This document shows positions 3,001 through 64,000 of a stretch of 64,000 nucleotides of DNA, in pieces (position 1 is the stretch's first letter; each line of letters opens with the position of its first letter). Source of the DNA: Gracilariopsis chorda (lineage: Eukaryota > Rhodophyta > Florideophyceae > Gracilariales > Gracilariaceae); contig NBIV01000003.1 in assembly GCA_003194525.1 (NCBI GenBank), positions 434,001-498,000 of the forward strand, read 5' to 3'. The notes beneath the pieces are model-generated. The model was not told the origin of the DNA and did not search any database. It saw only the letters and a list, made by a program, of their open reading frames with translations. Both the position numbers and the translations under genes were made by a program.

Positions 3001-4531
3001 CACGTACGACTACTCCCTCTTCTGGTGCCTGCATGCTGATATCGACGGCGGTATCTGCATTTTGTTGTTGTTGTTGCGTGCTAAGCATGGATCGGTACCG
3101 CTCACGCACCACGTCTGGCTTGGGCTGGATCACATCGTACAACTTGGGCACGATGTCTCGTACGTTGATGTCTTGAATGAACGCACGCAAATTGGCACGC
3201 GCATAGTGAGAGGGATCCAAGGAAGGCAGACCAGTACCCCACAGAAAGCTGTAGCGCGTGTTGTTCTGGTTCTGCGTGGGCAGAGCGAGAGCTGCGTTTC
3301 CCTCGAGTCTCAGAAAGGAGGGACCGCCTCCCGTCACATACGACATGTCCATGAACGCTTGCGTCGTAGCGAAGATCGTATTCAAGTTGAGAAAATGGCT
3401 GTGGAAGGCTCTCAGACTATAAAGACTGCGAACCAACTCGTTGCTATGCCTTCTGCGGAACGTGACGCCCCACCCTGACATTCTTTTCATTCCACAGCAC
3501 ACTCCATTGGTCTCTTTGCCAAGCAAAACGCATCCGCAGTACTTGCAGCTATGAATTCTCAATGTCCAGTCCCGGTACGGGCAGGAGGAGAGCGTGTGTG
3601 CGTGCTCGCCGCATCTTCCGCATCGTCTTTGACCTGCAGTGGGAAGCGTCTCAAACTCTGGCACGCTTGCACGGATGGCCGGATCATTCCTCGCCTGAGC
3701 TGCCACGGAATCCCACGCTTAGTACACGCGATAGAGTCCTCGATCAGGACGCCCAGCACAGTGCATGACCGTCGTATCAAGCTGTTGCTGTTGCTGTTGC
3801 TGATGCTGCAGCTGGTGTGAGGGAGCCGGTGTGATCTCATCCGCTTCCACCTCCATCGAAATGGACATCTGTTGTTCTTCCTGTTCAGCTTGTGGCGACG
3901 CAGGCTGCGGCGGCGGGTGTGAGGGAGCCGGGGTGATCTCATCCCCTTCCACTTCCATCGGGACTGGCATCTGTTCTTCCTCTTGTTCAGCTTGTGGCAG
4001 AGCAGGCTGCTGTGATGGCGGTGGCTGTGAGGGAGCAGGGATGATCTCATCCTCTTCCAATTCCATCGCAATAGGCATCTGTTCTGCAGGCATCGGTGGG
4101 AGAGGGGGAGGCATCGGAGGCGGTTGAATGTGCCTTGGAAGGCCTCTCACAAACTCCAGAAATCCAGGAATTGGGCACGATGTTGGTAGATCTGTGGCAG
4201 CGGACCCACTGGCTCCAGCGGCGCTTGTGCTAACTGCTGCTGCAACCGAAGTAGGTGCAGGAGTAATTTCGTCTTCTTCAACCGCTGGAACAATAGGTCC
4301 TTGAACGTGTGCTCCGCTCTCATTTACTCCCAACTCATCTGGAGCTGGAGGAGCTGGTTCTCTTCGGGGTCTTCCAGCTCCTGCCCGTGCTCCACCACTG
4401 CCGACGCGACGACCACCAGCGTTTTGCCTTGAACCGCCTGCGTTCAACCTGGCACCTCCAGAATTGTCTCTGGCACCTCCCGAGTTAGATCGGATGCCAC
4501 CAGAGTTCAGACGTCGCCCTCCTCTCGTCAT
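1..4531 (-). pseudogene. Helitron Rep-helicase, 5' part and most of the body (left end outside window)
   Basis: The protein nicks and unwinds DNA for rolling-circle transposition. One frame runs from the ATG at 4531 to the left edge, about 1510 codons, interrupted only by TAA at 3719-3721 and TAG at 2435-2437. In order: a glycine-rich N-terminus of about 7-residue repeats (residues 1-60); three degenerate P/Q/E-rich repeats of about 35 residues (near 150-250); a cysteine cluster with CGRCGEHAH and CKYCGC near residue 300; a Helitron N-domain with FPLLYPYG near 600; the HUH Rep motif HHHMLVW near 845; the two-tyrosine motif AYLMKYAFK near 962; and a Pif1-type helicase with Walker A GSAGTGKT near 1341 and Walker B VLDEASML near 1425. 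The catalytic residues visible are intact. With two stops I call it recently inactivated; readthrough cannot be excluded from sequence alone. The helicase C-terminus and the element's 3' hairpin lie beyond position 1. Confidence 0.92.
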
Positions 4532-5190
4532 TTCAATTTACCAAAGAAAAGAAAAAACAATTCTATGTTTTTAAACCGTTAAAAAATTTGCCAGAGTTCC
4601 AGAATAGTTCCCAATAAAACACAAAGTTGAAAGTCAAAAAAACTGGTTGCAGTTTGTTGCGTTGCACCCACCGAGCCTAGTCGCATGCAGCAATGGAAAA
4701 CAAATTGCTGCAAGGCTTATATTTACCCGATGCAGTCGTGCGCAGCACAGGGACTCTCGACACACTCCTGTTGGATTATGACGGGCGGAGTGTGCCCAGC
4801 CGGTTTTCAAGCCGTTTGATGTTCAACCCGCGTCCGGTTGTAAGGATTGGTCTGCCTTTACTCACACACCGAAGTGTGCTTTCCGGCCCCAAGAGGTACG
4901 ACACGGCGGCCGCCCCGGACCCTGCACAGCAAGCTGGTATTAGGTCCGGTAAACCCTCAGACTTCCTGATCGCCGTCAAACGACCAGTATACCACAGAGG
5001 AGCACCTGACTTTTCCCAGATCCGTGGTACTTAGTGGGTTACTCTTGTGGCGACCTGCACACGAGCTCGGCCTTGCCTAGGTCCCAGGCCAGCAAACAGT
5101 GCCCAAAGTAGCAAAAGGTTACGACACTGCGCTATTGGCCAAGCCTGAATGGGATGCCAAAAAGTTGTTAGGGTCAGCAAGCGAGATGCA
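4532..5190. other. Region upstream of the Helitron gene, no supported gene
   Basis: AT-rich at 4540-4680. It holds a perfect 8-bp inverted repeat, GCAGCAAT at 4687-4694 and ATTGCTGC at 4704-4711. An open frame of 113 codons on the plus strand (4693-5034) has no recognisable domain. The Helitron 5' terminus should lie here or further right, but I cannot identify it. Confidence 0.4.
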
Positions 5191-5199
5191 TTTGGCACT

Positions 5200-5377
5200 G
5201 CGCCAGTGCAGTATATACGTCTGTTGCCGGCATGTCTGCAATGAAACTTCAGTATACACTGTACTGGCGCAGTGCAATTTGCCACGTGTTGGAATGCACT
5301 GCACTGGCGCAGTGCAATTTGCCACGTGTTGGAATGTACTGCACTGGCGCAGTGCAATTTGCCACGTGTCGGAATGA
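5200..5377. repeat. 40-bp tandem repeat with palindromic core
   Basis: Two full copies of a 40-bp unit at 5264-5303 and 5304-5343 and a partial third from 5344. Each begins CTGGCGCAGTGCAATTTG and contains CACGTG. The core GCACT-GGCGC-AGTGC is a near-palindrome. An inverted copy of the core lies at about 5200-5226, facing the array. Confidence 0.8.
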
Positions 5378-5487
5378 ACCGCTGGGTTTCTGCTGCTGAG
5401 TGGCTGGCACTACAATTTGATTGTATTGCAAGCCATTCAGCAGCCATTGCACAGTCAACATTCAGCAGCAGCAGCTAATTAACTGAA

Positions 5488-5640
5488 CGCTTTGCTGCTG
5501 CTGCTGCTGCTGAATTTTTTAAATGGTAGGGAGGCGTTGCGCCAAATGGGCGATTTGCATGGGCAAACGGGGGCGTGCAAGAGGATTTTATGGCGCAACG
5601 CCTCCATTCAATCAAGAACCCCCCCCTCATTGAGGAACAA
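5488..5640. repeat. Hairpin repeat unit, copy 1 (CTG tract plus 15-bp inverted repeat)
   Basis: A GCT/CTG trinucleotide tract, an AATTTTTTAAATGG segment, and then a perfect 15-bp inverted repeat, GGAGGCGTTGCGCCA at 5530-5544 and its complement at 5591-5605. Between the arms is a smaller hairpin, TTTGC..GCAAA. The layout suggests a short non-autonomous or foldback element. Confidence 0.75.
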
Positions 5641-5811
5641 ATACTTATGATGGAGAGACAAGTGGAAACGGCCTTCGGCCGTGGGCGGCGCTGCGCGCCG
5701 CGTTGTTCTTGTAGCTTTGTGTATTTAGTAGCGTTCGGAGGCTCTTCGAGCACTTTGCTCGCTTGCGCTCGCAATAGCGCTCGTAGAACCACGGGGCGCG
5801 GCGGCGCCTAG

Positions 5812-6066
5812 GTGCCTAAATTGACTGCAGTGCCAGCCAATGATGAGGAAGCGTGACACGTTGCTTTGTGTAACTGGGTGGCACTGCAGTCATTATGGTA
5901 GTGCCAGCCAGTAAGCAGGAAGCTTTGCTGCTGCTGCTGCTGCTGAATTTTTTAAATGGAAGGGAGGCGTTGCGCCAAATGGGCGTTTTGCATGCGCAAA
6001 CGGGGGCGTGCAAAGCGAATTTGTGGCGCAACGACTCCCGTCAGTCAACAACACCCCCCTCATACA
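5812..6066. repeat. Hairpin repeat unit, copy 2, with flanking inverted ACTGCAGTGCCA motifs
   Basis: 5926-6066 repeats the 5488-5640 unit in the same orientation, including the CTG tract and the inverted arms at 5963-5977 and 6024-6038, with one mismatch between the arms. Just before it, ACTGCAGTGCCA near 5825 and TGGCACTGCAGT near 5880 form a further inverted pair. Confidence 0.7.
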
Positions 6067-57600: not shown

Positions 57601-59683
57601 CATTTTTGAGCATTGCTCACCGGTCAAAGTGTTGTGGGGTGCACGCTCGCGCTTGGCAACCACTGATTGTATTGAAGAGTTTGGAGAAGCAGCAAATGGA
57701 ACAGTTTCAAAAGAACTAATGCCAAAATCGCCTCTTACGCCACTGTTGACGTTACACGCGTTATCCAGGAGTCTATCCGAGCATTTTACATCGTTTAAGC
57801 CACCTTTCTCAATACCCTCCCTTGAGATTGGTCCTTGCCGTGGCGTATTCGGTAGAATTGAACCCAGTCTACGTTCTTCCTGTGGGATCGAAGTTTCTTG
57901 CTTCCAAAGCTTGCGTTAGGGTTTATACACTCCGCTTCGTGAAGCACGGCAATCAAAGACGCCTCCCCTCAGGGCATTTCGTGCTATGTAACACGCAAAA
58001 GGAAGGATAAAAGTCCTCAGAACCACTGGAGTCACCGTACACCACATCATCTTCGCTACGTGTGTCTGCATCGCTTTGAGATAAAGGTCCATGTAAATGA
58101 TCTAGGAGGTAGCATGATGGGCTGTTGTAGAACTCGGCTCCCTGGAAGGGGTGGATGGTTCGAATTATGCTCGATAGACGTAAATATTCTCCACTTTTCC
58201 GTACTTGCTCTTCTAAGTCTTGCACACGGGAGGTTAAAGAGGGGCGAATGCCCTCAAACCTCATTCTCAAATCATCGGGGCATGGAAACTATTGAGGGGT
58301 ATGCGTGTGTATCAAGTCTTGGTCAATTACCCAAAATCTCGTCACCAGATAGACTTTTGCAAGAATATTGGAGCGACACTGCGACTTGTGCCGCAGACAC
58401 CGCAATTCTCCAGTGAGTAGCGCAGACGACCTCGACTTCCTCGTCTGCAAAACTGAGAAGTATTGTACACCATAGAGGTATCCAAATGTCTTAGCGATGT
58501 AGGCAACCAGTGCAAAGAGGTCAAAGACCTTCTTTAAACCTTTCAGAGCTGAGACAAGCCTCTCATTTGACATCGCAAGTTCTGTCTTACATTCAATACC
58601 GTCCTGAAGATTCACCTGAACCCCTGGACGCGTTCTATTGTTTTCAAATCTCTCTTCGAAGTCTGTCTGAGCCTCAGGCCATGACCCGGTCTTCATAGCT
58701 AGTCATTCAGAGATATTCGTTGATGGTAGCTCCATGTGCGGCTTCTCCTGTAGCTGAGCATCAGAACAGGCTGCTAGCTCTTCATTAAGCTCTTGAGATT
58801 GACAACCATTCTCAGAAGCCTACTTATTCTCTTCAATCTGTGCTTCAGCTTGTGCCTTAAGCTTGGAAGTCGCAGCGGTCTCCTTCGCATTTTCTTCAGC
58901 TTCTATATCTACATATGTCTGTTTCCAATTCATCGTATTTGCTCGTGAATGTCCGTCAATTTCCATTTCTACTTCACAACCTTCTCCATTCTGAATCCCT
59001 TTCTGCTCCTCTTCTACACCTGATACTCCACCTACTTCAAAATATCTTCCAGTTTTCTCATCGAGCGCTTTTTGCACCACCTCGGAGCGCTGTGATACAC
59101 ATCTCTCAATCAATGTGTTCAAAATGTCCGCTACAACCAGAGCAGAATCAGAAAACTGTAATCGTCGCTTCATGCGAATCTTGAGGAGTAGACACATCGC
59201 ACTGCTCTGAACAGAGCTTTGGTTCAGCTCAAGAAGACGCTTTGTTCGCTGGCTTTTCCGTATAGCACGTTCCTCAGCGTCGCGCCCACCCAAGGGCATC
59301 GGCTTAAGAGTCTTTTCTATACAGGGGTTTTTTAAACCATCCACTACCTTTCTCTCTCCTTCTTCCCGTTCTCGCAAAACTGTATTCACATCTTCTTCTT
59401 CTTCCTTTCCAGTCTGCTTCCCAATGTTCCGCTCCACTCTTCGTTTCCTCCGCTGCCGTATTTTACCTTCCTTCCACATGAGAAGGAGTTCTGTACGGTG
59501 CTCTGACCGGAACCGTACCACCATTGTTTTAGTAAGAATGTGTATTTGAAAGAACTCCTTCGCCATCAGTATGTGTAGTATCCGGATTCTAATAGACATC
59601 CATCGAATCCTCTCAGCCAACTCCCGGCAGTACCCAGAGGCATATGCTCGCTTCGGGATACAGCTGTGGTCTACACTGAACAT
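54669..59683 (-). pseudogene. Mutator-like (MULE) transposase with FAR1-like and SWIM domains, broken
   Basis: On the minus strand. 59683-58820 is a charged N-terminal region in the same frame as 58696-58289 (FALVAYIAKTFGYLYGVQYF, GELRCLRHKSQC, FWVIDQDLIHTHTPQ), a FAR1-type zinc finger with C..C..HxH. That frame continues to 57953. 57663-57136 is acidic and ends in a second FAR1-like start, LQSIAECFGYSLFVRTS. 56645-56259 is the DDE core: YVLTFFMGYMCSATEENL, PVIVGMDQNTACINAAEKLF, LDEWHLNENQKKSV. 56258-55767 continues it. Near 55500 VCSCGQPWSVGSAFRHMV is a SWIM finger with one cysteine changed. 55319-54669 is a clean C-terminal region of 216 codons with a basic, serine-rich tail. At least four frame changes. 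Terminal inverted repeats were not identified. Confidence 0.8.
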
Positions 59684-59695
59684 GGTGAAAAGGGA

Positions 59696-60625
59696 TGTAG
59701 TGCAACGCCCTCAGGGAGGGATTCTTGGTACTTGAACGCTTTCCCGATATTATCGGTTGTGTAGTGTGTATATGAACTACGCCCCACTATGGTGGATATG
59801 GACACGTGGGACACGGTTTTGGGTAAGTTGGCGGTTGGCCACAGTAGTGGATGTTGCCACGAAATGTGGAGTATTTTAATTAATATTATTTATTATTTTC
59901 ACACCCATTTCTGGGAAGCTAGTACTTAGTGCGACGGCGCACTGCCGTCGCACCAGTAAACCTTCCCCAACAAGGGACCCCAACCTGGGGAATTGGCTCT
60001 AGTTGTTGCCGCTTGCGCGCGTGCTCTACTCCTCCTTGGAGGGAAACGCCGTGAACCACGGGACATCTAACCCCCTTGCACATCTAAAGGGACCCATCAC
60101 TGGGAGTATAATTGTTCCAATTGCATTGGTGTTTCGCCCTGTATAGGGGTATTGTTACCGGCATCGCCGTTCGTCCCCGTCGCTCTCGCGTCTCACTTCG
60201 CCCTCTTTTTCCCCTCTTCGCCCTTCATTTTTCCCCTTTTTAGGGTAGCACCTCCCGCTATCCGCGGCCCTCGTGTGCGCATCCGCTCACACACCCCCAC
60301 TTCCGTGGAAACATACCTCTACTGAGGATCACACCCCGCTCACGCGGATACCGATTCTTCGCCTTCACCTCCCTGCGCGAGTCGCGACAGGTGTCCCTGG
60401 TCTTACAAACCGGCTTCGCCGTGACACCTCTGGGAGGGCTCTACCCAACTGGGTTCACCTCGTGAGAGGAAGATCCCGAACTTCTTTCGGTGTTTTTCCC
60501 CTTTGGGGCATTGCACCACAAAGTGGTCTTCCGACCTTGAATCAGTTTTTGTTTTCCCTCTTACGAGGTTTGTTTTTATTTACCGGAAGTTCCGTGATCG
60601 TTTCCCGTCGTAACGGTATTTTCTC
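59696..60625 (+). mobile_element. Gypsy F 5' LTR and untranslated leader (limits approximate)
   Basis: Precedes gag. A possible LTR start is TGTAGTGCAACGCCC at 59696, 13 bases from the MULE start codon. Contains an AT-rich block (59878-59900) that may act as promoter and a perfect 10-bp hairpin, GTGCGACGGC (59929-59938) and GCCGTCGCAC (59944-59953). From about 59710 onward short perfect inverted repeats follow each other closely, for example CCCC-TTT-GGGG at 60498-60508 and ACCAC-AAA-GTGGT at 60515-60527. The 3' LTR is outside the window, so the LTR end and the primer site cannot be fixed. Confidence 0.6.
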
Positions 60626-62800
60626 ATGTCGAGAAATCCCTCCGACGCGGAGCCAGTGGTTACGCGCAGTCGCTCCCGCGACAACGCGGACACTTCCGAA
60701 GTTCGGTTCGTACCCCGTATCCCTATACGGACAAGTTCCAGCCGTGCTGGCGCCGTTTCATCGAGGAATGATACCCCCGACCGGGAACCCCGGAACCTCC
60801 TTTTGCCCTCTTTATCACCCCCGCAGGGGAATGCAGCATCGATTCCGGCTGTTGCCGCAGTGCCCCAGGCACCCCGGCCTGCTCCCGTGGTCGCGGCTTC
60901 AAACCCCCGTGGAACGGGCGATAACACCCCCCAGGGGACTTCCCTGGAATCCCAGGTCCGCGCTCTGTGGACCGCCCATGACACCCTTGTAGGGGAACTA
61001 AAATCCCTCCAAGAGGTGGTCTCGGCAACCCCCGTAAAGGAGGTCGCCGAGGAACTCCGTATTTTACGGTCTGACGTCAACTCCGTGTTGGAGAGTTTGG
61101 GACAACCCGCCACCTTCATCGAAGTAGTTGAAGCCCGGTTTGATCGGATTGGTGCCCGCCTGGAGACGCTGGAGCAGTTCGTCCTCATGGACAAACCATC
61201 CCCGGATGATCCGGTAAACGAGGCATCGCACAACCACCAGCTTGCTGGGAATAAGAAACGCCGTCATCGACGGAAACACCACCGAAAATATTCGGACTCC
61301 GGTTCTTCGACATCCTTGGACTCATCCCGAAACCATTCGGATAGCTCGAGCTCCTCGGACTCCGACTCGGAGGACGAGAAGCGAGGCTACTCCTCCCGCT
61401 CGAGGCGGTCATCGGCCACTGAAGGTGTGGTCCGAACCCGCCAGAAGGGGAGAAGACACCCCGGTCTCCGGGAATTGAAACCGACAAAACCGGATTACCG
61501 GAAGCTTTTATCATACCGGTACTACCGGCTCGAAGACTCGTCACTTGGACGTACGCCCCGTGGTACGGGAAAGGTGCGAGAATGCATTAAGCGAATGCAG
61601 CTCTCGCTCCGCAACCAGTATTTTACTGGAGAGGACCCAGTCCTAGTACTGGATTTCCTATCCCGCTTTATAGCGGAGGCCGATATCCTCGGTATGAATG
61701 AGGGACAAGCCTATTTGGCTTTACCGTATTTCTTACGGGGAGTGGCGGAGGACCAATACACCTCTGTCAGAGGATCTTCTCGCGCCTCCGAGGGAGGAGT
61801 TACTTGCTGGCCGGAGGCTGTGCAGTATCTTCTGCGCTCCTACGCCACCAACACCGCTATTCAGCACGCTATCCTCGCTTTGCGAGATACACGCCAGCGT
61901 GCTGGAGAGACCGAGACCGATTACTCGGTGCGCCTTAACAAGGCGTTCCACAGATGTGGTAACGTTTACCCCGCTGGGGAGCGCAGTACCATGTTCATTG
62001 ATGGTCTTGACCCGGCAATCCGGAGTTTAGTTACCCGTTATCGGGAGGACAAGCGGAGGATCACCTTCCTCGAGCTGGTCCAACACGCCCGAGCGGAAGG
62101 GGATGCACTTCGTGCAAGAACTCCGAACAATCGGTCTAAATCCGCCAAGGCGTTGTTGCTGGAAAGCGAAGCTTCCTCTCTCCCGCTCACCGCGGATGGG
62201 AACCCTGGACAGGGATTTGATACCGTGCATTTAGCGCACGGGGATGGTGTGTCGATACCCACCAGTGATTTACCGTCAACGACGGAGATGACCCGTGATA
62301 TGGGAATGGAAGACCCCGTTTTGTACAGTGGTAACAGTCGGGTTCAACCCCAACGACTCCCGTTTTCAAACGGTCAATCCCGTTATCAACGGCCTGGATG
62401 GACTGACACCCGCCCTGCGGTTCGCTTCTCCGATACTCGGAATAATAATCCGCGTGTCGCGGTGCTGGCTCTCATTTGCCACCTGTGTTATGCCCATGGC
62501 CATTCCTCTCCTCAGTGTATTTGTTCACTGAAGGATATGGCCAAGGTGGTGGCAAATTATGAGGCCCTCACTCCAGAGGAGAAACGTTCCGTCCCGACGG
62601 CTTCCTACCTCCGTGCTAAAACGGACTTTTCCCACGCCCTACCACAGACCCCGCGTGCGCGGCAAGCTTCATACACCCCGATTCAGGAGATCACGCAACC
62701 ATCCGTTGCAACCCCCGCTTATGCGGATAGAAACCCCCGTCAACGGGATGAAGCACTCGTTGTCAAGGAAACCAACCCACCGCCGAAGGCGGAAAACTAA
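60626..62800 (+). CDS. Gypsy F Gag, intact
   Basis: Forms the virus-like particle and binds the RNA. 724 residues, ATG 60626 to TAA 62798-62800, fully open. A variable N-terminus and a helical segment lead to a basic then acidic-serine tract (KKRRHRRKHHRKY, SSSSSDSDSEDEKR, about residues 210-260). The retrotransposon Gag core follows (NQYFTGEDPVLVLDFLSRF, FLRGVAEDQYTSV, LRSYATNTAIQHAILALRDT, RLNKAFHRCGNVYPAGER; about 330-500). A zinc knuckle CHLCYAHGHSSPQC (CX2CX4HX4C) sits near residue 618. Micro-hairpins in the DNA often fall on P-x-G or T-P-x-G peptides. An overlapping plus-frame at 60273-60992 is taken as chance. Codon use is richer in G+C than in the neighbouring elements. Confidence 0.93.
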   Translation: MSRNPSDAEPVVTRSRSRDNADTSEVRFVPRIPIRTSSSRAGAVSSRNDTPDREPRNLLLPSLSPPQGNAASIPAVAAVPQAPRPAPVVAASNPRGTGDNTPQGTSLESQVRALWTAHDTLVGELKSLQEVVSATPVKEVAEELRILRSDVNSVLESLGQPATFIEVVEARFDRIGARLETLEQFVLMDKPSPDDPVNEASHNHQLAGNKKRRHRRKHHRKYSDSGSSTSLDSSRNHSDSSSSSDSDSEDEKRGYSSRSRRSSATEGVVRTRQKGRRHPGLRELKPTKPDYRKLLSYRYYRLEDSSLGRTPRGTGKVRECIKRMQLSLRNQYFTGEDPVLVLDFLSRFIAEADILGMNEGQAYLALPYFLRGVAEDQYTSVRGSSRASEGGVTCWPEAVQYLLRSYATNTAIQHAILALRDTRQRAGETETDYSVRLNKAFHRCGNVYPAGERSTMFIDGLDPAIRSLVTRYREDKRRITFLELVQHARAEGDALRARTPNNRSKSAKALLLESEASSLPLTADGNPGQGFDTVHLAHGDGVSIPTSDLPSTTEMTRDMGMEDPVLYSGNSRVQPQRLPFSNGQSRYQRPGWTDTRPAVRFSDTRNNNPRVAVLALICHLCYAHGHSSPQCICSLKDMAKVVANYEALTPEEKRSVPTASYLRAKTDFSHALPQTPRARQASYTPIQEITQPSVATPAYADRNPRQRDEALVVKETNPPPKAEN

Positions 62801-64000
62801 CTGAGGGAGTCTCCCCTTTGGGAGAGGCGTCCTCAAGAACGAGGCTTTTGGCGCCCGAGGCGTCCTCGCCTCGCTCCCCGGTGAAAGTCCTCTCGAGGAA
62901 AGACACCGCTGACGCGGACTCTGCGCACCTCGGTGTGTTGCGTCGCCCGTGGATACGGAGTAAAAATCCCCGGATCCCCTGTAGAGTCTTGGTCTTGGCC
63001 AAGCGCAATTATAAGGTCTATGCCGACCTTGGCCTTGACCCCCAGTTTATGGTGAGGTTTCTCACCGTCCTGGATACAGGTGCAGGCCCCAACTTTGTTG
63101 TGGAATCATTGTTACCCCCGCTTGTGCGGTCGCGTATCCGCTCTGACGCGGTCCCCGACATTTCGGATGCAAACAACAATCCGTTACAAACGGTGGGCAC
63201 AGTGGACCTCGTCGTGAGACTTGGTACCTCTGTGGTGAAGTTGGACTTCATCGTTTGCCGTTCATTGGCAGCACCAGTAATACTGGGATGTGATTACTGC
63301 GACAGATTTGTCGACGCAATCAGGCCCCGCCTCAGGCGTGTAGAACTTGACGACGGATCGTCGGTTCCGATTGTTCGCCGCCCGCTAAAGCGGTCCTCTC
63401 GGAAACAAGTTCCCCTCCCTGCTGCGCAGGAACCACCGCCCGCGTCCCGCGAGTCCACCAAGCTCCACGTCGCTGCCTCGGTTTCTATACCGGCTGAGTC
63501 CCAAGTCTGGGTGCAGGTGAATTCCCGTCAACACGGTCTTCGGGTTATACAACCCATCGCCTCGTTGTACGAGAAATCCCAGCTGGCGCTGGCTAATGGA
63601 ATTGTCTCCATTTCCCCGGATGTCACTTTCCGGATATTGGTTGCCAACCTTGGCAAACACCCCCAGTATCTGGCCAAACACCAAGTAATTGGGAGTGTAA
63701 CCCCCCATCCTATGGGAATGCTGCCAACAAAGATGACAGCCGCCGATGTACTCGGAGTTACCACCTCTTCTGAGGAGTTCGCCCCGCCGTCCAAAGACGT
63801 CAAGTCTAAGGAGGGGGAGGAAACCGCTACTTCAGCGTCGAACATACCGAGTAACTCGGAAATGCGAACCACACCTGTTCCACAGGACAATGCTCCCTCG
63901 AGCAACAACTGGATTGATCCGGAGAAGGCACTTGAAGCGCTGGACTTCAGCCAAGTGCCAGAGTCGCACCGCAACAAACTCCGTACAATGTTACGGGAAT
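62752..64000 (+). CDS. Gypsy F Pol, N-terminal part (protease onward), intact to the right edge
   Basis: Open in the -1 frame relative to gag from 62752, after TGA 62749-62751, to the end of the window, overlapping the end of gag by 49 bases. A linker is followed by a retropepsin-like protease with FLTVLDTGAGPNFVVESLL (about 63055-63115) and PVILGCDYCDRF near 63275. A proline-rich stretch and a beta-rich segment (VSIPAESQVWVQV, ISPDVTFRILVANLG) follow, and then DFSQVPESHRNKLRTML, the usual lead-in to reverse transcriptase. RT, RNase H and integrase must lie to the right. The first codons are uncertain because Pol is probably made by frameshift. Confidence 0.85.
62791..62825 (+). promoter_or_regulatory. 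Possible -1 ribosomal frameshift site at gag-pol junction
   Basis: The heptamer G-GAA-AAC (62791-62797) sits directly before the gag TAA. Twelve bases later TCTCCC (62810-62815) pairs exactly with GGGAGA (62820-62825) around a CTTT loop. Slipping back one base enters the open pol frame. The heptamer is not one of the classical strong X-XXY-YYZ sites. Confidence 0.45.

What the first reader, a model, noticed from the sequence alone, without database searches (positions are those of the whole stretch)
59700..64000. Gypsy F is packed with tiny perfect inverted repeats, in coding and non-coding sequence alike
In gag alone (2175 bp) I count by eye 28 exact stems of at least 5 bp with loops of 2-5 nt. 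Equal base composition predicts about 8.5 (2175 x 4 / 1024). Most have the form CC...GG. Examples: CCGTAT-CCCT-ATACGG (60715-60730), CCAGC-CGT-GCTGG (60738-60750), CCCGT-GGA-ACGGG (60906-60918), GCATT-AAGCG-AATGC (61584-61598), CCGCT-TTAT-AGCGG (61663-61676), CCGTA-TTTCT-TACGG (61724-61738), CCGTT-TTCA-AACGG then CCGTT-ATC-AACGG (62360-62392), GGTGAG-GTTT-CTCACC (63051-63066), TTGCCAA-CC-TTGGCAA (63641-63656). Stem sequences differ, so this is not one repeat family but a repeated geometry. It starts where the element starts and I do not see it in the gypsy, copia or DIRS elements nearby. Possible causes: selection for local RNA structure (packaging, silencing escape, translation pacing), a template-switch mutational bias of its reverse transcriptase that perfects palindromes, or serial insertion of small palindromes. 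I know of no described retroelement with this property.
Basis: partly seen in the sequence, partly recalled or inferred. Interest (0 to 1): 0.9.

Follow-up and report, generated by a model that had tools for sequence, protein, structure and literature searches.

The report
Retrotransposon tiled with tiny hairpins
A family of jumping genes in a red-alga-like genome carries a short, perfectly matched hairpin every few dozen letters along its whole length, in genes and non-coding DNA alike; related families share the pattern, and evolution seems to preserve it, perhaps as a tag by which the element's own proteins know its RNA.

Summary
Confirmed, and stronger than reported. All ten quoted hairpins are in place. 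In 60001-64000 there are 77 perfect stems (arm >=5, loop 2-5) against about 16 in shuffles preserving 2- to 5-mers; gag has 54 (loop 1-5) against 12 under synonymous-codon permutation (maximum 24). The excess fills the ~9.9-kb Ty3/gypsy chromodomain element, LTR to LTR, and stops at its ends. The unit is specific: CC, two or three more Watson-Crick pairs, a short loop (mostly 2-4 nt), GG, A-rich flanks, preferred spacing about 20-24 nt. GG...CC stems are not enriched; CC-anchored stems seldom extend outward. Four further gag lineages (44-57% amino-acid identity) in this genome show the excess, with different stem bases (CC..GG versus TC/AC..GA/GT). Eleven other gypsy clusters lack it. Hairpins recur at homologous sites with paired changes. 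Between F copies, stem-losing substitutions are half the neutral expectation, without a clear excess of stem-gaining ones; two F2 copies look near-neutral. I favour selection on the sense RNA over a palindrome-making mutation bias. Function is inferred: most likely a dispersed binding array for the element's own Gag. Main difficulties: no tolerance of G-U pairs, high turnover.

The parts
59695..60521 (+). 5' LTR of element F (about 827 bp; 14 mismatches to the 3' LTR, 9085 bp downstream and outside the window); itself carries the hairpins
60522..60625 (+). leader; a possible primer-binding stretch starts near 60524 (judged by position and TGG only, a recalled rule, not tested)
60626..62800 (+). 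gag ORF, open; 48 perfect stems >=5 bp with loops 2-5, 32 starting CC
62477..62518 (+). CX2CX4HX4C zinc knuckle of Gag (C622, C625, H630, C635 of P0001), invariant in 13 aligned Gags
62752..64000 (+). second open frame, runs past the window end; RNase H, integrase and chromo domains follow downstream in L011
59695..64000 (+). hairpin array, the part in the window: 83 stems >=5 bp with loops 2-5 (47 starting CC)
60049..60061 (+). LTR hairpin CCGTG-AAC-CACGG; L002 has CCGTA-GTG-TACGG, a paired change shared by at least 8 of 9 other copies at the two stem columns
61583..61599 (+). gag hairpin TGCATT-AAGCG-AATGCA; F2 has CTGCATA-AAGCG-TATGCAG and L076 TCATACG-T-CGTATGA at the same centre; L077 and L078 have none there

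Best explanation
Element F belongs to a clade of chromodomain Ty3/gypsy retrotransposons whose genomic RNA is tiled from end to end with short hairpins of limited length. Each unit is a 4-5-bp Watson-Crick stem closed at its base by CC/GG (plus one more T-A or A-T pair in some families), a loop of mostly 2-4 nt and A-rich flanks, with a preferred spacing of about 20-24 nt. Shown here: the excess, its limits at the element's ends, the orientation and limited outward extension, the strand asymmetry of the surroundings, its presence in all five gag lineages of this clade that were sampled, recurrence at homologous sites with paired changes, and depletion of stem-losing substitutions among F copies. 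Inferred: that the sense RNA is the molecule that folds and is selected. Inferred further, and less surely: that the hairpins are a dispersed array of binding sites for the element's own Gag (it has a CCHC knuckle), used to select, coat and condense its RNA in virus-like particles.
For: Excess and controls. Specific unit: CC..GG with three inner pairs 95 against 6.1 expected, GG..CC 7 against 5.2, which plain folding energy would not predict. Limited extension: for CC-anchored stems >=5 bp the next outward pair is Watson-Crick in 4 of 90 (22.7 expected) in F and 2 of 40 (10.1) in F2. Sense strand: at that outer pair (stems >=4 bp) G-U is avoided and A-C favoured (9 and 57 in F+F2 against 34.6 and 41.4 expected from composition; p 7e-8); A exceeds T within 6 nt of F hairpins but not farther away; in F, G is rare at the last loop base (10 of 135) while C is not rare at the first (32 of 135; p 3e-4). 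Spacing: more pairs than random placement at 16-24 nt in F (z 2.7, 2.4) and 20-24 nt in F2 (z 3.6), fewer at 28-36 nt (z -1.1 to -1.9); C-minus-G spectral power over the whole elements is highest at 20-27 nt. Clade-wide. Covariation: 58 shared centres between F and F2 (5.8 by sliding), 9 of them identical in sequence; gags of five lineages. Selection: 150 polarised substitutions gave 16 stem losses (34.4 neutral, p 4e-4); single-copy changes among nine young copies 14 losses (about 22 neutral); decay from L001 would leave 82.9 stems (sd 4.1), L002 has 107. Folding: 120-nt windows mean z -1.34 in F, -0.15 and -0.09 in two controls.
Against: G-U pairs are not tolerated: at pairs 3-5 (arm 5, loop 3) A-T/T-A reach 87 against 10.9 expected but G-U only 22 against 12.4, near A-C 20 against 15.1; between F and F2 a stem pair becomes G-U about as often as A-C (70 and 66 by one change). 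The antisense strand folds almost as well (z -1.15). Most hairpins turn over: 20 of 151 F stems stay fully paired in F2, and over all stem pairs the rate of paired change matches isolated pairs in one direction (0.048 and 0.046) though not in the other (0.077 and 0.046). The F2 pair L075/L042 evolves near-neutrally for stems (8 losses, 7 gains, 4 unclear; about 9.2 and 4.4 expected), and its arms changed more than the rest (27/455 against 62/2750). On the short L079 branch 4 stems were lost in 9 substitutions (about 2 expected). F2 windows fold only slightly better than shuffles (z -0.46). The LTR piece alone has its spectral peak lower, at 14-22 nt.
Confidence: 0.48

Rival explanations
1. RNA-level selection for the same hairpins but for another end: shielding the RNA from small-RNA silencing or nucleases (roughly one hairpin per few small-RNA lengths, stems too short for Dicer), or pacing translation.
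For: Preferred spacing 20-24 nt and limited stem length; all parts of the RNA covered, LTRs included; genome-wide folding excess.
Against: A shield needs no CC..GG orientation and should accept G-U pairs; the stem base differs between families; translation cannot explain the LTR and leader.
Confidence: 0.22
2. A mutation bias: the element's reverse transcriptase (or a repair enzyme) turns near-palindromes into perfect short palindromes by template switching, so the hairpins are a by-product.
For: Pairs are strictly Watson-Crick and one-mismatch stems only mildly enriched, as argued for the perfect mitochondrial palindromes of Nematomorpha (PMC6649704, discussion read); one LTR hairpin changed by a 5-nt cluster that kept its stem; differences between copies cluster more than Poisson (gaps <=3 nt: 36 against 13.7, 111 against 72.1, 10 against 7.0); gains slightly above neutral among single-copy changes (8 against 4.9) and in the F2 pair (7 plus 4 unclear against 4.4); high turnover.
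Against: On the three polarised F branches gains are 6 against 7.5 while losses are depleted; most stems that differ between copies do so by one arm substitution (24 of 26 entries for L001/L002, 61 of 71 for L011/L074, 16 of 23 for the F2 pair); such a bias would not by itself give CC..GG only, limited extension, A-rich flanks or preferred spacing.
Confidence: 0.17
3. Selection on single-stranded DNA hairpins in the cDNA during reverse transcription, not on RNA.
For: In DNA a G-T pair is a mismatch, which fits the missing wobble.
Against: At the pair just outside the stem, G-U on the sense strand is avoided like a real pair; I recall no step of reverse transcription that needs hundreds of hairpins.
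Confidence: 0.08
4. Chance, composition or codon use.
For: The element is GC-rich (0.52-0.62 in most regions, leader 0.42).
Against: k-mer, synonymous-codon and codon-order shuffles; L077 and L078 have GC 0.52 and still show the excess; GC-rich bins outside F do not.
Confidence: 0.01

Closest known systems
Dispersed packaging signals of small RNA viruses (MS2, picornaviruses and others; PMC6281560, passages read)
   Same: Many small stem-loops spread through genome RNA, variable in sequence around a shared feature that the coat protein recognises.
   Different: In MS2 the feature is in the loop and a 5' A bulge; here the loop is free and the stem base is fixed. The carrier here is a ~10-kb LTR retrotransposon, the array has a preferred spacing, and protein binding is untested.
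Genome-scale ordered RNA structure (GORS) of some RNA viruses (recalled; only a listing seen)
   Same: Folding energy below shuffles along the element (120-nt windows z -1.34).
   Different: GORS as I recall it has no fixed short unit, orientation or spacing; the F2 folding excess is small although its hairpin excess is large.
Perfect coding palindromes in Nematomorpha mitochondria (PMC6649704; abstract and discussion read)
   Same: Perfect inverted repeats inside functional coding sequence, gained and lost between species, no excess of imperfect ones.
   Different: Those are up to 284 bp and their authors raise a repeat-conversion mechanism; here arms are mostly 4-6 bp with a fixed orientation, and stem losses are depleted among F copies.
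Yeast Ty3 genomic RNA (PMC11381356; abstract and section 29 read)
   Same: Ty3/gypsy element; Ty3 Gag has one CCHC knuckle, reported critical for RNA packaging (PMC4974528, passages), and F Gag has a CCHC knuckle too.
   Different: Ty3 RNA is A-rich (about 36% A) with mosaic structure and packaging functions placed at the 5' end; the parts read report no hairpin array.

Membership tests
Ty3/gypsy (chromovirus-type) LTR retrotransposon | two long terminal repeats flanking one element | tested here: met
   LTRs of about 827 bp, 9085 bp apart, 14 mismatches
Ty3/gypsy (chromovirus-type) LTR retrotransposon | pol order RNase H, then integrase, then chromodomain | tested here: met
   RT_RNaseH, Integrase_H2C2, rve in one ORF, Chromo in a downstream ORF of L011
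Ty3/gypsy (chromovirus-type) LTR retrotransposon | Gag with CCHC knuckle and gag domain | tested here: met
   knuckle invariant in 13 Gags; Retrotrans_gag matches 7 of 13 at E <= 0.01, not F itself
Dispersed packaging signals | many stem-loops with a shared feature through the genome RNA | tested here: met
   CC-anchored hairpins from LTR to 3' end of F
Dispersed packaging signals | stem-loops bound by the coat/Gag protein and needed for assembly | not testable with these tools
   no protein or RNA experiment available
Genome-scale ordered RNA structure | folding energy below composition-matched shuffles along the genome | tested here: met
   F mean z -1.34 (75 windows of 120 nt; antisense -1.15); F2 only -0.46
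Template-switch (quasipalindrome) mutation | excess of stem-creating changes over the neutral rate | tested here: inconclusive
   6 against 7.5 on three F branches; 8 against 4.9 among single-copy changes; F2 pair 7 plus 4 unclear against 4.4
Template-switch (quasipalindrome) mutation | multi-base changes that perfect an arm | tested here: inconclusive
   one 5-nt cluster at 60049-60061; single arm changes in 24 of 26, 61 of 71 and 16 of 23 differing stem entries of three pairs
Inserted mini-palindromes | length differences at hairpins between copies | tested here: not met
   ten copies of 4603 letters each although stems differ

The most novel reading that the evidence does not exclude
The array is a self-recognition code written through the whole RNA: each family's Gag reads the base of the stem, and the base has diverged between co-resident families (CC..GG with an A-rich flank in F, F2 and L079; TC..GA in L077 and L078; AC/TC in L076), so each family packages its own RNA among many gypsy RNAs. 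That would be a genome-long, quasi-regular protein-binding lattice in a retroelement, laid over the protein code.
Probability: 0.27. Interest if true: 0.92.

Novelty: new variant of a known kind. Interest (0 to 1): 0.83.

Why it matters
Packaging functions of studied retroelements (Ty1, Ty3, HIV-1) are placed at the structured 5' end of the RNA (PMC11381356, section read). An element in which about a quarter of the sequence lies in CC-anchored hairpins (26.5%), overlaid on the protein code and present in lineages at 44-57% Gag identity, would show that a retroelement can write its recognition signal everywhere. The lineages with different stem bases and their Gags make this directly testable by matched and mismatched binding. 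If it is instead a mutation bias, it would be an unusually strong case of a polymerase sculpting a genome into palindromes.

Tried and rejected
Chance, GC and codon use: rejected. Plain RNA stability: rejected as the sole cause, because GG..CC stems and G-U pairs are not enriched like CC..GG and A-U. Duplex-DNA binding of a CC..GG factor: would not need the inner pairs to match. Insertions: same length in ten copies. The first mapping of copies was wrong because minus-strand loci had not been turned; redone. The lower substitution rate of arms mixed fixed and private changes of L001; replaced by the neutral simulation and the polarised count. In one search six stem patterns that vary among the nine young copies were left out of the branch counts. 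Relatives elsewhere: two scans of viral contigs and one tblastn of plasmids found none; the protein search listed 37 Gag relatives, 6 named Agarophyton chilense, but I had no tool giving their DNA, so the age of the trait beyond this genome is unknown. Other gypsy clusters: 60 loci found by RNase H or chromo domain were all counted; L042, L056 and L072 exceeded twice the shuffles (L072 is F, L042 is F2; L056 fell to 24 against 14.3 with 100 shuffles). One representative each of 11 non-F clusters gave ratios of 0.7-1.7. L036 fell into the F cluster only through an F LTR at its end; its own ratio is 1.04. Whether any of these loci is the pol of the L076-L078 lineages was not tested. Weak single-dinucleotide signals (L037 AA..TT 9 against 1.2; L041 GG..CC 6 against 1.0; L056 AC..GT 6 against 1.1) were not followed up. 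F2 was picked because its copy L042 stood out; L076-L079 were picked from gag search lists before any hairpin count. Literature: nine searches listed no hairpin array in an LTR retrotransposon; most papers were seen as listings only.

Changed on re-checking: the confidence in the best explanation went from 0.50 to 0.48 and in the mutation bias from 0.15 to 0.17, because the gain counts of single-copy changes and of the F2 pair had been given too little weight.


Full report
What was checked. A full count of maximal perfect stems (arm >=5, loop 2-5) gives 77 in 60001-64000 against about 16 in shuffles preserving 2-, 3-, 4- or 5-mers (200 each, maxima 26-30). In gag (loops 1-5) 54 are seen against 12.3 under 500 synonymous-codon permutations (maximum 24). 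The rest of the window is at background, GC-rich bins included.

The element. F is a Ty3/gypsy retrotransposon: LTRs of about 827 bp with 14 mismatches, 9085 bp apart, RNase H, integrase and chromo domains, and a Gag with a CCHC knuckle invariant in 13 aligned relatives. The genome is an unnamed 91.3-Mb assembly; 61 gag matches at 95% identity or more were scored, a lower bound. Six of 37 protein hits are named Agarophyton chilense, the best among them, so the host is probably a related red alga; this is inference.

Extent. Regions of F from LTR to 3' UTR carry 9-24 stems per kb (arm >=5, loop 1-5), 2.7-5.0 times the shuffles; two flanks are at 0.9 and 0.6 times. CC-anchored hairpins (>=4 bp) number 1 in the 2.7 kb before the element and 27 in the 919 bp of LTR and leader.

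Geometry. By arm and loop the excess lies mostly in arms 4-6 with loops 1-5, peaking at arm 5 loop 3 (53 against 5.6 over F); arms >=7 with loops 1-5 are 11 against 2.9. CC..GG stems with three inner pairs: 95 against 6.1; GG..CC: 7 against 5.2; CC N{k} GG pairs are in excess for k = 5-10, and slightly again at 29-30. For CC-anchored stems of >=5 bp the next outward pair is Watson-Crick in 4 of 90 in F and 2 of 40 in F2 (22.7 and 10.1 expected). CC-anchored hairpins cover 26.5% of F and 13.7% of F2. Pair distances are in excess at 16-24 nt in F and 20-24 nt in F2, with dips at 28-36; the later peak near 36-44 in F is weak (z 1.2-1.3). The C-minus-G signal has its highest power at 20-27 nt over both whole elements, but at 14-22 nt in the LTR piece.

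Which molecule. Inverted repeats look alike on both strands, but their surroundings do not. Within 6 nt of F hairpins A exceeds T (0.326 and 0.246) while farther away they are equal. In F, G is rare at the last loop base (10 of 135) but C is not rare at the first (32 of 135). At the pair just outside the stem, sense-strand G-U is avoided and A-C favoured (9 and 57 in F+F2 against 34.6 and 41.4). These point to the sense strand, although the antisense strand folds nearly as well in silico (z -1.15 against -1.34). The puzzle is that inside stems G-U gains little over A-C, and between F and F2 stem pairs pass to G-U and A-C about equally. A reader that needs an exact helix would explain this; so would a DNA stage or a templated mutation.

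Spread. A sister family F2 (L075; pol 73%, gag 57% amino-acid identity) has 131 stems against 37.6 (maximum 54 of 100 shuffles), CC..GG 45 against 3.7; it was noticed through the high count of its copy L042. Four more gag pieces, picked from gag search lists before any hairpin count, all show the excess: L076 26 against 8.5, L077 31 against 9.0, L078 (one stop) 29 against 9.0, L079 36 against 7.5, with synonymous controls alike. L079 is F-like (96%); L077 and L078 are related (75%). Five lineages are thus represented: F, F2, L076, L077, L078. The stem base differs: CC in F, F2 and L079; TC (13/1.1 and 9/1.1) in L077 and L078; AC and TC in L076, where CC is only 2/0.9. In L077 and L078 the favoured start is T, C, C, which reads as the same CC with one more outer pair. 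Eleven other gypsy clusters (one representative each) gave ratios of 0.7-1.7.

Evolution. F and F2 (66% nucleotide identity) share 58 stem centres (arm >=4) against 5.8 by sliding, only 9 with identical sequence; 23 against 1.1 for arm >=5. Of 151 F stems 20 stay fully paired in F2, 8 of them through paired changes. Among the five gags, shared centres (arm >=4) exceed the sliding mean in all ten pairs, though not the sliding maximum in F-L077 and F2-L077; for arm >=5 F-L077 shares none. So sites are partly kept and mostly turned over at a maintained density. In 150 polarised substitutions in 3.1 kb, 16 stems were lost (34.4 expected) and 6 gained (7.5 expected); on the young-copy and window-copy branches together 3 were lost against 15.8. 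Among nine young copies, stems missing from one copy are 14 (about 22 expected from 97 singletons) and stems in one copy only are 8 (about 4.9). Random decay from L001 would leave 83 stems; L002 has 107. Against this, the two F2 copies look near-neutral with gains if anything above expectation, and one short branch (L079) lost 4 stems in 9 substitutions.

Reading. I favour selection on the sense RNA for a dispersed hairpin array, most likely read by the element's own Gag, since the trait follows one Gag clade and the stem base differs between families. That last step is inference. A different RNA-level benefit is the main rival, then a template-switch bias, for which the strict pairing, the clustered changes and one 5-nt cluster that kept its stem speak, and against which the depleted losses, the orientation and the strand-specific surroundings speak.

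Known relatives. Dispersed packaging signals (PMC6281560, passages) work alike in principle; GORS (recalled) is looser; Nematomorpha palindromes (PMC6649704, abstract and discussion) are longer and conversion was raised for them; Ty3 RNA (PMC11381356) shows no such array in the parts read. Nine searches listed nothing closer.

Noticed in passing
window 5257-5376: Three tandem 40-bp units; at 5300 and 5340 a 7-bp perfect stem TGCACTG-GCG-CAGTGCA. The 2-kb bin 4001-6000 has the highest stem count of the window outside F (19 with loops 1-5).
   Followed up: partly
window 59929-59953: A 10-bp perfect hairpin GTGCGACGGC-GCACT-GCCGTCGCAC in the F LTR, far longer than the usual unit; also seen in the F LTR at the end of L036.
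   Followed up: no
L037 (gypsy cluster L037-L039): AA..TT-based short stems 9 against 1.2 expected, total stems only 20 against 14.6; could be a weak analogue in another family or A-tract overlap.
   Followed up: no
L041: GG..CC-based stems 6 against 1.0 expected with no CC..GG stems, total stems at background; possibly chance.
   Followed up: no
G000 C883, C819, C573, C1001 and others: RT_RNaseH hits recur about every 5.68 kb along several small contigs, suggesting head-to-tail arrays of one gypsy family; similar ~6.35-kb spacing on C509 and C755.
   Followed up: no
window 58820-59710, minus strand: A 296-aa open frame (stop to stop) abuts the left edge of the F LTR, so F may have inserted at or next to another gene or element.
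   Followed up: no
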